DNA of 64,000 nucleotides from Streptomyces fumanus (GTDB taxonomy: Bacteria > Actinomycetota > Actinomycetes > Streptomycetales > Streptomycetaceae): positions 620,001-684,000 of the forward strand of contig NZ_BNBI01000001.1 of NCBI RefSeq assembly GCF_014655295.1, in the 5' to 3' direction. The notes under the pieces are model-generated. The model was not told the DNA's origin. It worked only from the letters and a program-made list of their open reading frames with translations, and did no database searches. Positions 11,256-30,798 of this stretch are shown in pieces. The translations under genes and the position numbers were made by a program. Every line of letters begins with the position of its first letter. Position 1 is the stretch's first letter.

Positions 11256-11511
11256 ATGCAGGACAGTACCCCGCGGAAGAGGTGACGGTCAGGTCGGACC
11301 GGCGCCGTGGACCGGTGACTGACGGTTTGTCACCATCGGCGTCCGCCCGGCCGGCGGGGCGCGGCGCCGTGCCAGCCGAATGGACCCACCTCGCGTCCCG
11401 AACGAGTGACATCGCCCCTTTTCTCCCGATACGTACTGGTTTCATGGCTAGCATCACCGCGAAGCCTGTCCCATGCACGGGGCGGGTTCGACCGTTGAAC
11501 CCGGAGAGAAA

Positions 11512-11742
11512 ATGATCAAGAAGTTTCTGACGTGCGCGGCCGTCACCGCGGCCGCCTGCGCACTGGGAGCCGGAAGCGCCGCCGCGAGTTGCGACGAGGG
11601 CCACGAGCGTGACGGCCACCACGAGCGTCTCGTCGCCGCCGAGAAGACCGGCGGCAGCTTCGAGGCCCTGCGGACGTCGTCCGGCACCGGCATCTACGAG
11701 GGTTCCCTGCACCACGCGGCCTTCGTGAGCGTCACCGACTGA
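11512..11742 (+). CDS. Small secreted protein, unrecognised
   Basis: The 76-residue product starts at the ATG at 11512 with GGAGAG seven bases upstream. A signal peptide (MIKKF, then a hydrophobic core ending near GSAAAS) leaves a mature His/Glu-rich peptide of about 50 residues starting SCDEGHERDGHHER. That segment could bind metal, but this is speculative. A strong bidirectional hairpin terminator follows 37 bases after the stop. It opens a run of genes for small exported proteins. No family was recognised. Confidence 0.7.
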   Translation: MIKKFLTCAAVTAAACALGAGSAAASCDEGHERDGHHERLVAAEKTGGSFEALRTSSGTGIYEGSLHHAAFVSVTD

Positions 11743-11778: not shown

Positions 11779-11830
11779 GAAAAAGCCTGAGGCCCCTCGA
11801 TCGAAAGATCAGGGGCCTCAGGGCTTTTTC
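11779..11830. terminator. Strong bidirectional terminator hairpin
   Basis: A stem of about 24 bp with two single-base bulges runs from GAAAAAGCC through TGAGGCCCCT to a GAAA loop and back. A-runs and T-runs lie on the two flanks, so it can terminate transcription from either side. It follows the small secreted gene that ends at 11742. Confidence 0.9.
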
Positions 11831-11873
11831 CGCACATGCACCCGATAGTGGTGCGGCGAGCCGTAGCGCAGCA

Positions 11874-11908
11874 CGTCGGGGCCGCTCCAGGAGCGGCGGC
11901 CCCGACGT
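11874..11908. terminator. Hairpin downstream of the first tandem secreted gene
   Basis: The outer stem GTCGGGGCC/GGCCCCGAC encloses a second perfect stem, GCTCC-A-GGAGC, with a three-base bulge. It lies 31 bases after the stop at 11939 and has no T-run. It is probably a terminator for the minus-strand gene. Confidence 0.65.
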
Positions 11909-11938: not shown

Positions 11939-12220
11939 TCAGTCGATGACAGCCCCGAGGATGGGGAGCGCCGGGGCGGCGGAGTCGTCGGTGACCTTCG
12001 ACTTCTGACGGATCTCGTTGCACTGGAACGCACGGGCCTCGTCCAGGACCTCGATGGTCAGGATGTCGACGTCCTGAATGGTGGGGCAGATGTCGCGGAT
12101 GATCTCGATGTTCTGCGAGTAGTGGCCGTGCACCTCTTCGTCGGCCATGGCCGGCGAGACCGCCACGCCGGTAGCAGCCAGCGTCAGCATCGAACCGGCG
12201 AGAACCTTCTTGGCGTTCAT
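11939..12220 (-). CDS. Small secreted Cys-containing protein, tandem paralogue 1
   Basis: The 93-residue protein starts at the ATG at 12220 with AAGGAAGG eight bases upstream. The signal peptide MNAKKVLAGSMLTLAATG ends at AMA, leaving a mature peptide of about 66 residues. Its core is ADEEVHG, IEIIRDICPTIQD, TIEVLDEARAFQCN and a PALPILG end. Two cysteines, in CPTIQD and FQCN, could form one disulfide. The next two upstream genes are close paralogues with nearly identical leaders. No known family was recognised. It is probably secreted to the cell surface or medium. Confidence 0.85.
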   Translation of the reverse strand: MNAKKVLAGSMLTLAATGVAVSPAMADEEVHGHYSQNIEIIRDICPTIQDVDILTIEVLDEARAFQCNEIRQKSKVTDDSAAPALPILGAVID

Positions 12221-12377
12221 TCGTGTTGCCTTCCTTGTGCGTGATAACCGCGGCACGTAGTGGCGAGTGCCGACAGCCTACTAACCCACTTCATACCCTT
12301 GGGGTTCCGTGCCGCGACCACGATTCATCCACTTGCAGCAATGGGCGTCCGGGGTGCCGCCGTAAAGGCATGAAAAG

Positions 12378-12420
12378 GCCCCGGACTGCGCGGCTGGTCG
12401 CACAGTCCGGGGCGCTTTTT
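12378..12420. terminator. Hairpin terminator after tandem paralogue 2
   Basis: A 14-bp stem, GCCCCGGACTG with a GC extension, closes over a short loop. It is flanked by AAAA on one side and GCTTTTT on the other. It is bidirectional in form and sits 50 bases after the stop at 12470. Confidence 0.88.
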
Positions 12421-12469
12421 ACCTCGTCGAGGACAATCCTCGGAAGCCGGGTGAACGGATTCCGGGAAT

Positions 12470-12754
12470 TCAGTCGTTGACGACCTGTCCGAGCAGCGGC
12501 AGGGCCGGCGCCGACGAGCTGTCGTGCACCTTCGACTTCTGGCGGATCTCGTTGCACTGGAAGGCACGGGCCTCGTCCAGGAGCTCGATGGTCAGGATGT
12601 CGATGTCCTGGATGGTGGGGCAGACGTCGCGGATGATCTCGATGCTCTGCGAGTAGTGACCGTGCACCTCTTCGTCGGCCATGGCCGGCGAGACCGCCGC
12701 GCCGGTAGCTGCCAGCGTCAGCATCGAACCGGCGAGAACCTTCTTGGCGTTCAT
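12470..12754 (-). CDS. Small secreted Cys-containing protein, tandem paralogue 2
   Basis: The 94-residue product shares an almost identical signal peptide and mature core with paralogue 1 (ADEEVHGHYSQ, IEIIRDVCPTIQD, ARAFQCNEIRQKSKV) and diverges only near the C-terminus. The start, the RBS and about 100 bases of upstream DNA are also conserved, including a TTCATCC-CTTGCAGCAATGG element. This points to a recent duplication of a gene with its promoter. Each copy has its own terminator, so each is probably an independent unit. Confidence 0.87.
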   Translation of the reverse strand: MNAKKVLAGSMLTLAATGAAVSPAMADEEVHGHYSQSIEIIRDVCPTIQDIDILTIELLDEARAFQCNEIRQKSKVHDSSSAPALPLLGQVVND

Positions 12755-12950
12755 TCGTGTTGCCTTCCTTGTGCGTGAATCCGCGACACCTAGTGGTGAG
12801 TGCCGACAGCTCACTAACCGAGCCCGCACTCGTGGAGTTTCGTGCCCGGCCCCCGGTTCATCCGCTTGCAGCAATGGCCGCCGCCGGTAAGGCATATCGC
12901 CGGCCGATCGGATGGGCGGGGCACGGGGAAATCGGCGGGCCGCAGGACAA

Positions 12951-12992
12951 GGCCCCGGTGCCGTGCGGTGGTTCGCGCACGGCACCGGGGCC
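12951..12992. terminator. Perfect 17-bp hairpin after tandem paralogue 3
   Basis: GGCCCCGGTGCCGTGCG is repeated in inverted form around an 8-base loop, 24 bases after the stop at 13016. No strong T-run follows on the minus strand, which is common for Streptomyces terminators. Confidence 0.82.
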
Positions 12993-13015
12993 CGGAGAAA
13001 AGCGGTACCGGAGAA

Positions 13016-13297
13016 CTAGTTCCGGACGCTGCCGAGAATCGGCAGGGCCGGGGCCGACGAGTCGTCGGTCACCTTCGAGCCCTCGCGGACGTGGTTGCAC
13101 TGGAACGTCCGGGCCTCGTCCAGGACCTCGATGGTCAGGACGTCGATGTCCTGAATGGTGGGGCAGATGTCGCGGATGATCTCGATGTTCTGCGAGAAGT
13201 TGCCGTGCACCTCTTCGTCGGCCATGGCCGGTGTGGCGGCGAGCCCGGTGACGGTCAAGGTCAGCATGGACCCGGCGACGATCCTCTTCATGTCCAT
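13016..13297 (-). CDS. Small secreted Cys-containing protein, tandem paralogue 3
   Basis: The 93-residue protein uses the ATG at 13297, which has an AGGAGGT seven bases upstream, stronger than in the other two copies. The signal peptide MDMKRIVAGSMLTLTVTG ends at AMA. The mature part retains ADEEVHG, IEIIRDICPTIQD and the second Cys (TFQCN) but is more divergent, for example NFSQ for HYSQ and VREGSK for IRQKSK. The upstream region differs from copies 1 and 2, so this may be the older member of the family. Confidence 0.87.
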   Translation of the reverse strand: MDMKRIVAGSMLTLTVTGLAATPAMADEEVHGNFSQNIEIIRDICPTIQDIDVLTIEVLDEARTFQCNHVREGSKVTDDSSAPALPILGSVRN

Positions 13298-13381
13298 GGT
13301 ATTTACCTCCTGGCGTATGGCGACGCCGTCAGGTGACGACGGCAGCACCATGGCTAACCGTTTTTTCGCGTGGACGTTTCT

Positions 13382-13441: not shown

Positions 13442-13690
13442 TCAGCCGAGCCGCAGCGCCTTGCCCGCCTGGGGAAGTACCTGGCGGGCGCTGTCCCCGC
13501 CGGCCTTGGCCACCAGGCCGGCGGGCTGCTGTGCGGCGCCGTCGACGGCGTCGCTCAGCCGGTCGGGGGAGACGCCCGGGATGCTGCTCAGGGTGGACGC
13601 GTCGGCGAGGTCCACGGCGTGGGCGGTGCCTGCCGCGGCCCAGCCCAGTGCCGTCGCCGCCAGCACGCCCGCGGTGAGGGTTCGTCGCAT
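13442..13690 (-). CDS. Small secreted protein, unrecognised
   Basis: The 82-residue protein starts at the ATG at 13690 with AAGGA seven bases upstream. The signal peptide (MRRTLTAGVLAATALGWAAA) ends near AHA. The mature peptide is about 56 residues, begins VDLADASTLSSIPGVSPD and has no cysteines. Its size and Ala/Gly/Asp character resemble the 98-residue secreted protein at 15775, but without clear homology. It lies in the secreted-protein island beside the DUF5949-like gene, 77 bases away. Confidence 0.7.
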   Translation of the reverse strand: MRRTLTAGVLAATALGWAAAGTAHAVDLADASTLSSIPGVSPDRLSDAVDGAAQQPAGLVAKAGGDSARQVLPQAGKALRLG

Positions 13691-13767: not shown

Positions 13768-14271
13768 TCAGCGGCGCAGTCGGGTGACGGGGACCAGGCA
13801 GTGGGAGCTGGCCGACCGCAGGTCGTCGTCGGTGAGGAAGGCGCGCAACTGCTCGGGGGCCACGGCCTCGCCCGGAGCGACGTGCGGCCACGGGCGGGTC
13901 AGGCAGATCAGCCGGACGGAGCCGTTGCGGTACGCGGCGTCCTGCCAGGACTCCGGGACCGGGCACTGCACCTGGAGGAAGGGCAGGGTGAGCACGGCCT
14001 GTTCGGCCTCGACCAGCAGGGTGACGGCGGCCCTGGCCTCCTGGGTCAGTTCGACCAGCTCGCCGGTGACCGGCAGGCCGATCTTCTCCAGGTGGGCGCG
14101 CATCGCCCGCTCCCCGGCCTCGGGTCCGCCCGCGCCGTCGCCGAGCGAGTACACCGTGAGGAACGGCAGCCGGGGGGTTTCGGTGGTGGGCACGCTGGAC
14201 CACGGGACGATGGTGAGGGTCCCCAGCAGGGACCCCCGCGGCGTCTCGGGTGCGGCGGTCGAAGAAGTCAT
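13768..14271 (-). CDS. DUF5949-like cytoplasmic protein
   Basis: The 167-residue protein starts at the ATG at 14271. An in-frame ATG at 14304 is possible, and neither has a strong RBS. Recognisable segments are LGTLTIVPWSS, LPFLTVYSLGDGAGGPEAG, the IGLPVTGELVEL segment, VEAEQAVLTLPFLQVQCPVP and a TRPWP...LVPVTRLR end. This is the pattern of the Streptomyces DUF5949 family as I recall it. Its biochemical role is unknown. There is no signal peptide, which is unusual for this stretch of exported-protein genes. Confidence 0.75.
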   Translation of the reverse strand: MTSSTAAPETPRGSLLGTLTIVPWSSVPTTETPRLPFLTVYSLGDGAGGPEAGERAMRAHLEKIGLPVTGELVELTQEARAAVTLLVEAEQAVLTLPFLQVQCPVPESWQDAAYRNGSVRLICLTRPWPHVAPGEAVAPEQLRAFLTDDDLRSASSHCLVPVTRLRR

Positions 14272-14389
14272 GGGGCCGGATGCTAGTGGCGCACCGGGGG
14301 GCATTCCGGGGGATTTCCACCCGTTCGGCGCAGCCCTCGGTCCGCATTCACCTGTCCGTGTCAGCTCCCCGGTCCGGGTCCGCGCGGGG

Positions 14390-29713: not shown

Positions 29714-30520
29714 TTACCGCGTGGCGGCGGCGCGGCTGCGGCGGTACAGGAGGACACCGCCGGCGATCAGCACGGCGCTCGCGGCGCCCGCGCCGAGCAT
29801 GCCCTCGGCGCCGGTCTTCGGCAGCGACAGCTTCTCGTCGTCCTCGGCGGGCGGCGCGCTCTCCTCACCGGCGGGCTCCGGGGACTCCTCCTCGTCGGAC
29901 GGCGTGGTCTCCTCGTCCTCCTCCTCGTCGGCGGGCGGGGCCTCCTCGTCGTCCCGCGGCGGGTGGTGGCCGGCCGGCGGCGCCTTCGGGGGCGCCTCGT
30001 CGTGGCCGTAGCCGCCGTGCTCGCAGCCGTTGCCGGCCACCGGGTTGAGCGCGCCGCCCACGTCGACGCTGTTGCCGCAGGCGTTCACCGGCACGTCCAC
30101 CGGCACCTGCACGACGTTGCCGGACCCGAGGCCGGACGAGCCCTCGGCCTCGCCGTACGCGCCCGCGTCGGGACCGTCGTCCTCGCCGTAGCCGGACTTC
30201 TCGTCCGCGCCGTAGCCGGAACCGTAGCCGGAGTCGTCGTCCTCGCCGTACCCGTAGTCGTGGTCGTCGTACTCGTCGCCGCCCTGGCGGCACTTGTTGC
30301 CGAAGGACGGGTTGAGGGCGGCGGCTCCGTCGACGGTGTTGCCGCAGGCGTTGACCGGCGCGTTGACCGGGACCTGGACCACGTTGCCGGACATGAAGCC
30401 GGAGGACTTCTTGGCGATGCCGTCCGCCTGCGCGTCGGCGAGGGCGGGGCTGCCGTAGAGGGACAGGACGCTCGTCGCGGCGGCAGCCGCGGCCATTCCC
30501 CTGCTCAAGGTCTGTCGCAT
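29714..30520 (-). CDS. chpA: Long chaplin with two chaplin domains and sortase signal
   Basis: The 268-residue protein has a signal peptide to about residue 29 and chaplin domain 1 at 40-78 (SGNVVQVPVNAPVNACGN, Cys59 and Cys77). A Tyr/Gly/Asp-rich spacer leads to chaplin domain 2 at 130-168 (Cys148, Cys166). A Pro/Glu-rich wall-spanning region is followed by LPKTG at 233-237, a TM segment and an RRSR tail, so sortase anchors it to peptidoglycan. Chaplins form the amyloid hydrophobic layer of aerial hyphae. Its pairing with a short chaplin matches chpA-chpD of S. coelicolor. The symbol is from that recalled synteny. Confidence 0.92.
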   Translation of the reverse strand: MRQTLSRGMAAAAAATSVLSLYGSPALADAQADGIAKKSSGFMSGNVVQVPVNAPVNACGNTVDGAAALNPSFGNKCRQGGDEYDDHDYGYGEDDDSGYGSGYGADEKSGYGEDDGPDAGAYGEAEGSSGLGSGNVVQVPVDVPVNACGNSVDVGGALNPVAGNGCEHGGYGHDEAPPKAPPAGHHPPRDDEEAPPADEEEDEETTPSDEEESPEPAGEESAPPAEDDEKLSLPKTGAEGMLGAGAASAVLIAGGVLLYRRSRAAATR

Positions 30521-30570: not shown

Positions 30571-30798
30571 TCAGTCGATCTCGCACTCGTTGCCGGAGGC
30601 CGGGTTCAGAACGCCGATGACGTCGATGGTGTTGCCGCACGCGTTGACCGGGACGTCGACGGGCACCTGGACGACGTTGCCGGAGAAGGAGCCGTCGGCG
30701 TCCTTGGCCACGGCGGTGGCGCCCGCGTCGGCGACGGCCGGTGTCCCGAAGCCCAGGGCCATGGCCGCGCCCGCGACGAGAGCAGCACTCTTCCTCAT
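30571..30798 (-). CDS. chpD: Short chaplin
   Basis: The 75-residue secreted protein has a signal peptide to about residue 24 and one chaplin domain: DGSFSGNVVQVPVDVPVNACGNTID with Cys54, then NPASGNECEID with Cys72. The two Cys form the conserved disulfide of most chaplins. It self-assembles into amyloid fibrils at the air-water interface to lower surface tension during aerial growth. It lies 50 bases upstream of the long chaplin on the same strand. The symbol chpD is inferred from the adjacent long chaplin. Confidence 0.92.
   Translation of the reverse strand: MRKSAALVAGAAMALGFGTPAVADAGATAVAKDADGSFSGNVVQVPVDVPVNACGNTIDVIGVLNPASGNECEID

What the first reader, a model, noticed from the sequence alone, without database searches (positions are those of the whole stretch)
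11939..13297. Three tandem paralogues of an undescribed secreted disulfide peptide
Three consecutive minus-strand genes encode 93-94-residue precursors with a signal peptide. The mature peptide of about 66 residues has invariant ADEEVHG, IEIIRD-CPTIQD and FQCN segments (two Cys). Copies 1 and 2 are nearly identical including promoter DNA, and each copy has its own strong terminator. I do not recognise the family. Amplification of a secreted peptide next to tyrosinase and chaplin loci suggests a surface or signalling role.
Basis: partly seen in the sequence, partly recalled or inferred. Interest (0 to 1): 0.75.

Follow-up and report, generated by a model that had tools for sequence, protein, structure and literature searches.

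The report
Short divergent rodlins replacing classical rodlins
Three neighbouring genes in a Streptomyces genome encode small secreted proteins that look like a shortened, unnamed form of the rodlins, which build the fibrous outer coat of aerial filaments and spores, and they seem to stand in for the normal rodlins in this strain and its relatives.

Summary
In detail: three minus-strand genes encode 93, 94 and 93 residue precursors (mature 67-68 residues, two cysteines). No Pfam or NCBIfam model reaches its cut-off. "Undescribed" stands; "signalling or inhibition" gained no support.

Best explanation: short, divergent rodlins.
(1) Three genomes without classical rodlins carry convergent, chaplin-adjacent "bridge" pairs that align to this family (hhalign 4e-11) and to rodlins (4e-6), mature regions only, 0 of 200 column shuffles each. 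The direct family-rodlin match is weak.
(2) In a nearly colinear 19-24 kb chaplin/polysaccharide/tyrosinase locus, one genome has three rodlins where another has this triple.
(3) Carriers rarely keep classical rodlins: 0 of 10 against 215 of 384; 1 of 7 against 207 of 288.
(4) Family and rodlin genes share a promoter-like pattern: 34/40 and 21/24, control genes 1/286; held-out rodlins 20/20, family 3/3, bridges 0/4.

They lack most of the N-terminal region that makes RdlB amyloid and are far more charged, so whether they form rodlets is open. New variant of a known kind.

The parts
11939..12220 (-). copy 1, short rodlin-like precursor, 93 aa (mature 67)
12470..12754 (-). copy 2, 94 aa (mature 68)
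13016..13297 (-). copy 3, 93 aa (mature 67); Met-3 is an alternative start
12282..12308 (-). copy 1 promoter-like element GGAAC-N17-GGTTA
12815..12841 (-). copy 2 promoter-like element GAAAC-N17-GGTTA
13355..13380 (-). copy 3 promoter-like element GAAAC-N16-GGTTA
11873..11908 (-). inverted repeat after copy 1 (13-nt arms, 100%)
11780..11828 (.). second inverted repeat after copy 1 (18-nt arms, 89%)
12373..12418 (-). inverted repeat after copy 2; terminator-like
12951..12992 (-). inverted repeat after copy 3 (17-nt arms, 100%)
13442..13672 (-). sec76: 76-aa putative secreted protein, also labelled beside the array in 3 other of 10 triple loci
13768..14304 (-). DUF5949 gene (PF19374, E 2e-60); the same neighbour lies beside rodlins in other genomes
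11473..11742 (+). small89: conserved small ORF beside 8 of 10 triple arrays
29714..30520 (-). long two-domain chaplin with LPKTG-type end (boundaries read from sequence)
30571..30798 (-). short chaplin (boundaries read from sequence)

Best explanation
The three genes encode a short, divergent class of rodlin. Proposed working: as aerial hyphae form, a developmental (probably ECF-type) sigma factor that also drives classical rodlins transcribes each gene from its own promoter; the proteins leave by Sec, lose the signal peptide, and with the chaplins build the outer surface layer of aerial hyphae and spores, where classical rodlins would sit. The paralogues may share the work as RdlA and RdlB do. 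Shown here: coding sequence, family, bridge homology, locus position, exclusion with classical rodlins, shared promoter-like pattern. Inferred: the sigma factor, timing, surface location, assembly, and any rodlet.
For: Mature-only profile comparison: family-bridge score 55.2, E 4.1e-11 and bridge-rodlin score 34.7, E 3.8e-6 over 59 columns; none of 200 column shuffles reached either (best 19.4 and 20.0). Two Cys in all 22 family, 5 bridge and 19 rodlin sequences compared. Locus: G213 (S. longispororuber) has the triple, then chaplins-GH26-GT4-deacetylase-MurJ-sugar transferase-GT4-DUF5949-MelC1-MelC2-chaplin; G247 has three rodlins, then chaplins and the same genes in the same order and strands (spans 23.6 and 19.5 kb). 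DUF5949 lies within about 3 kb of 9 of 10 triple arrays and of 11 of 16 rodlin loci held; chaplins are next to 3 of 3 bridge pairs and 15 of 16 rodlin loci. Exclusion: 0 of 10 against 215 of 384 genomes over the rodlin cut-off, Fisher p 3e-4; 1 of 7 against 207 of 288, p 0.003. Promoter-like pattern 34 of 40 family and 21 of 24 rodlin upstreams, 1 of 286 control genes, 2% of shuffles; held-out rodlins 20 of 20, held-out family array 3 of 3. Sigma-BldN controls chaplin and rodlin genes (passages of PMC4255298, PMC4125116).
Against: The rodlin model NF041022 does not find these proteins (own genome). Direct family-rodlin comparison is near noise (score 20.1, 1 of 200 shuffles as high), so homology rests on bridges known from 3 genomes. 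Bridge genes lack the promoter pattern: 0 of 4 held out and 0 of 2 in G058. The window array is about 17 kb from its chaplins, and single-copy or two-copy loci (L026-L031, L092, L093, L095, L105, L106, L149, L150) have no rodlin-locus neighbour in the stretch held, apart from one SARP. G119 has both kinds. The proteins carry charged residues at 0.27 of positions against 0.09 in rodlins, and charge in the amyloid region abolished RdlB fibrils (PMC5314377). AlphaFold2 gave no confident fold (mean pLDDT 43.5). Carriers are related, so the Fisher tests overstate independence.
Confidence: 0.7

Rival explanations
1. Non-homologous replacement: an unrelated small secreted surface protein took over the rodlin site and its type of promoter, and the likeness to rodlins is convergence.
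For: Direct family-rodlin similarity is near noise; the curated rodlin model misses the family.
Against: Bridge pairs match both sides over mature regions, are convergent and lie beside chaplins.
Confidence: 0.15
2. A secreted signalling or antimicrobial peptide unrelated to the surface layer.
For: Small, secreted, two-Cys, multicopy. Weak Pfam match to Bacillus PapR for copies 1 and 2 (E 0.028 and 0.1; 15.2 and 13.4 bits against a cut-off of 27).
Against: The PapR match covers residues 4-44, mostly the signal peptide. No processing, immunity or export gene was recognised among the neighbours scanned. Locus, promoter and exclusion data point to the rodlin role.
Confidence: 0.06
3. A spore-wall or matrix structural protein of rodlin descent that no longer makes rodlets, for example a smooth sheath or an RdlA-like partner without fibrils of its own.
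For: Most of the RdlB amyloid region is absent, and charge is high (PMC5314377 sections 3 and 11, first parts).
Against: Hydrophobic beta-prone stretches such as ILTIEVL and PILGAVI remain; there is no experimental test either way. It overlaps the best explanation.
Confidence: 0.35

Closest known systems
Rodlins RdlA/RdlB (NCBIfam NF041022 rodlin_AB)
   Same: Signal peptide, two Cys, S-Q...C...D-I-x-V-L...QC core seen through the bridges, 2-3 copies near chaplins and DUF5949, similar upstream pattern.
   Different: 93 against 131-133 residues; lacks the Gly/Asn-rich mature N terminus and a segment after the first Cys; far more charged; no NF041022 hit.
Bridge pairs in G058 and in G440 and G449 (another genus)
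   Same: Same size and core; convergent pairs beside chaplins, in genomes without a rodlin over cut-off.
   Different: About 40% identical to the window proteins; no shared promoter pattern.
Chaplins (PF03777)
   Same: Small secreted developmental surface proteins with two Cys per domain; in the same locus in several genomes.
   Different: Separate family; the three proteins do not match PF03777.

Membership tests
rodlin_AB (NF041022) | match to the curated model over cut-off (75 bits) | tested here: not met
   no hit for any copy at E<=10; none in the own genome
rodlin_AB (NF041022) | full length about 131-133 residues with the N-terminal amyloid-determining region | tested here: not met
   93-94 residues; region mostly absent in the joint alignment; lengths from PMC5314377
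rodlin superfamily (homology) | significant profile similarity of the mature region | tested here: inconclusive
   met through bridges, direct comparison near noise
rodlin superfamily (homology) | two conserved Cys in a secreted precursor | tested here: met
   signal peptide read by eye
rodlin function | rodlin locus with chaplins and DUF5949 | tested here: met
   chaplins adjacent in G213, 17 kb away in the window
rodlin function | developmental sigma-BldN control | tested here: inconclusive
   shared upstream pattern; no sigma-BldN consensus was obtained from held papers (not held)
rodlin function | needed for the rodlet layer, present in TFA extract, forms fibrils | not testable with these tools
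   needs experiments
chaplin (PF03777) | chaplin domain | tested here: not met
   no hit

The most novel reading that the evidence does not exclude
A second class of rodlins has replaced the classical ones at the same locus and under a similar promoter. Without the amyloid-determining N terminus and with high charge, it builds the outer spore layer by a different assembly, so some strains scored as rodlin-less may have a hidden rodlin system.
Probability: 0.35. Interest if true: 0.65.

Novelty: new variant of a known kind. Interest (0 to 1): 0.52.

Why it matters
Rodlins are described as readily lost in streptomycetes, S. avermitilis among them (passage of PMC4255298). If short rodlins replace them, part of that apparent loss is missed annotation. 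A natural rodlin without most of the RdlB amyloid region would directly test which part of a rodlin is needed for the rodlet layer and why two rodlins are needed.

Tried and rejected
PapR-like quorum peptide: below cut-off and mostly on the signal peptide. Rodlin-model hits of G163 and G213 as the link: they lie elsewhere, in longer secreted proteins. Direct family-rodlin profile match: near noise; one search matched the signal peptide only, so signal peptides were then removed. Profile hits dropped as signal-region-only: G489, G543, G582, G587, G676, G358, G368, G369, G379; several are classical rodlins. Weak hits not counted as carriers: G035, G100, G195, G265, G290. G195 is a small secreted protein, perhaps a distant relative. 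G304 (E 0.003, 464-codon frame) was dropped. The fold prediction was unusable, so no fold search was run. Sigma-70 promoters: none found. A sigma-BldN consensus in held papers: not found.

Papers: PMC5314377 abstract, section 3 part 1 and section 11 part 1; PMC4255298, PMC4125116, PMC5650626, PMC5618241, PMC7766987, PMC9205884 passages only; all others search listings only. The statement that this family is not in print rests; 'rodlin-like' gave 0 papers.

Full report
Observation. Three adjacent minus-strand genes (11939-12220, 12470-12754, 13016-13297) encode precursors of 93, 94 and 93 residues. GC3 and dN/dS support coding. Nothing in Pfam or NCBIfam reaches its cut-off. The own genome has these three and no other match at E<=0.001. 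Copies 1 and 2 are 89% identical in CDS DNA, copy 3 is 80%.

Distribution. With copy 1, 7 of 295 sampled Streptomyces genomes match at E<=0.001. In the named collection there are 14 loci from 10 species records: huasconensis, sp. G44, candidus, longispororuber, ficellus, sp. DH24, aureocirculatus, iconiensis, flavidovirens, zagrosensis. With a profile, 19 of 394 Streptomycetaceae genomes match at E<=0.01, of which I keep 10 with matches over most of the protein. Among 150 relatives of G058 across 44 genera, only G058, G031 and a dropped weak hit matched the bridge profile.

Homology. Bridge proteins in G058, G440 and G449 have the size of this family and rodlin-like cores. With signal peptides removed, family-bridge scores 55.2 (E 4.1e-11) and bridge-rodlin 34.7 (E 3.8e-6, 59 columns); no shuffle of 200 reached either. 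Family-rodlin directly scores 20.1, reached by 1 of 200 shuffles. So homology is transitive, through few sequences.

Position. In G247 three rodlins and in G213 this triple head a locus whose following genes run in the same order and orientation: chaplins, GH26-like, GT4, deacetylase, MurJ, sugar transferase, GT4, DUF5949, MelC1, MelC2, chaplin. The exceptions are one extra chaplin in G247 and small89, sec76 and an acidic protein in G213. The rodlins and the triple differ in strand pattern. DUF5949 lies within about 3 kb of 9 of 10 distinct triple arrays and 11 of 16 rodlin loci held; the rodlin loci were chosen from top hits in well-assembled genomes, not at random. Two copies in S. aureocirculatus look truncated. 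The window has the same genes with the block rearranged: DUF5949 and tyrosinase beside the triple, chaplins about 17 kb on.

Exclusion. Classical rodlins over cut-off occur in 208 of 295 genus genomes, in 1 of the 7 carriers (G119). In the family sample they occur in 215 of 394, in 0 of the 10 carriers. G163 and G213 have weaker matches (E 5.7e-5, 6.3e-5), in different, longer proteins. Relatedness of carriers is not corrected for.

Promoter. A pattern NAAC-N14-18-VGTTR, 60-115 nt before the start, was relaxed after viewing the sequences. It is present in 34 of 40 family and 21 of 24 rodlin upstreams, against 1 of 286 control genes, whose starts are crude. The six family misses include both G058 bridges. 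On loci not used to set it: rodlins 20 of 20, family array of G627 3 of 3, bridges 0 of 4. All three window copies have it. Sigma-BldN controls rodlins and chaplins (PMC4255298 and PMC4125116, passages); that the pattern is its promoter is inference.

Mechanism. In RdlB, mature residues 17-42 drive amyloid formation and added charge there abolishes it; RdlA and RdlB are disordered in solution (PMC5314377). This family keeps only the end of that region and has a charged fraction of 0.27 against 0.09. AlphaFold2 gave no fold, which fits disorder but proves nothing. I therefore favour an outer-layer protein of rodlin descent (0.7) and leave fibril formation open.

Age. Each copy groups with its counterpart in S. 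ficellus and DH24, so the triplication predates this strain; support is good only for copy 3.

Verdict. New variant of a known kind.

Noticed in passing
window 11473-11742 (+): small89, conserved beside 8 of 10 triple arrays; weak NF041022 match to its signal-like part (E 0.089).
   Followed up: partly
window 13442-13672 (-): sec76, a small putative secreted protein labelled beside the array in 4 of 10 triple loci, the window included.
   Followed up: partly
L063 937-1836 (+); L064 1411-2157 (-): Secreted proteins of 299 and 248 aa with a C-terminal stretch that weakly matches the rodlin model.
   Followed up: partly
genera g57 and g46: Many genomes carry weak rodlin-model matches (best E about 1e-8 to 1e-17), possibly further divergent rodlins.
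   Followed up: no
L075 1468-1785 (+), genome G195: Small secreted protein with a weak family match (E 4.4e-5), perhaps another distant relative.
   Followed up: no
L026-L029, L105, L106, L149, L150: Dispersed single family copies away from labelled rodlin-locus genes.
   Followed up: no
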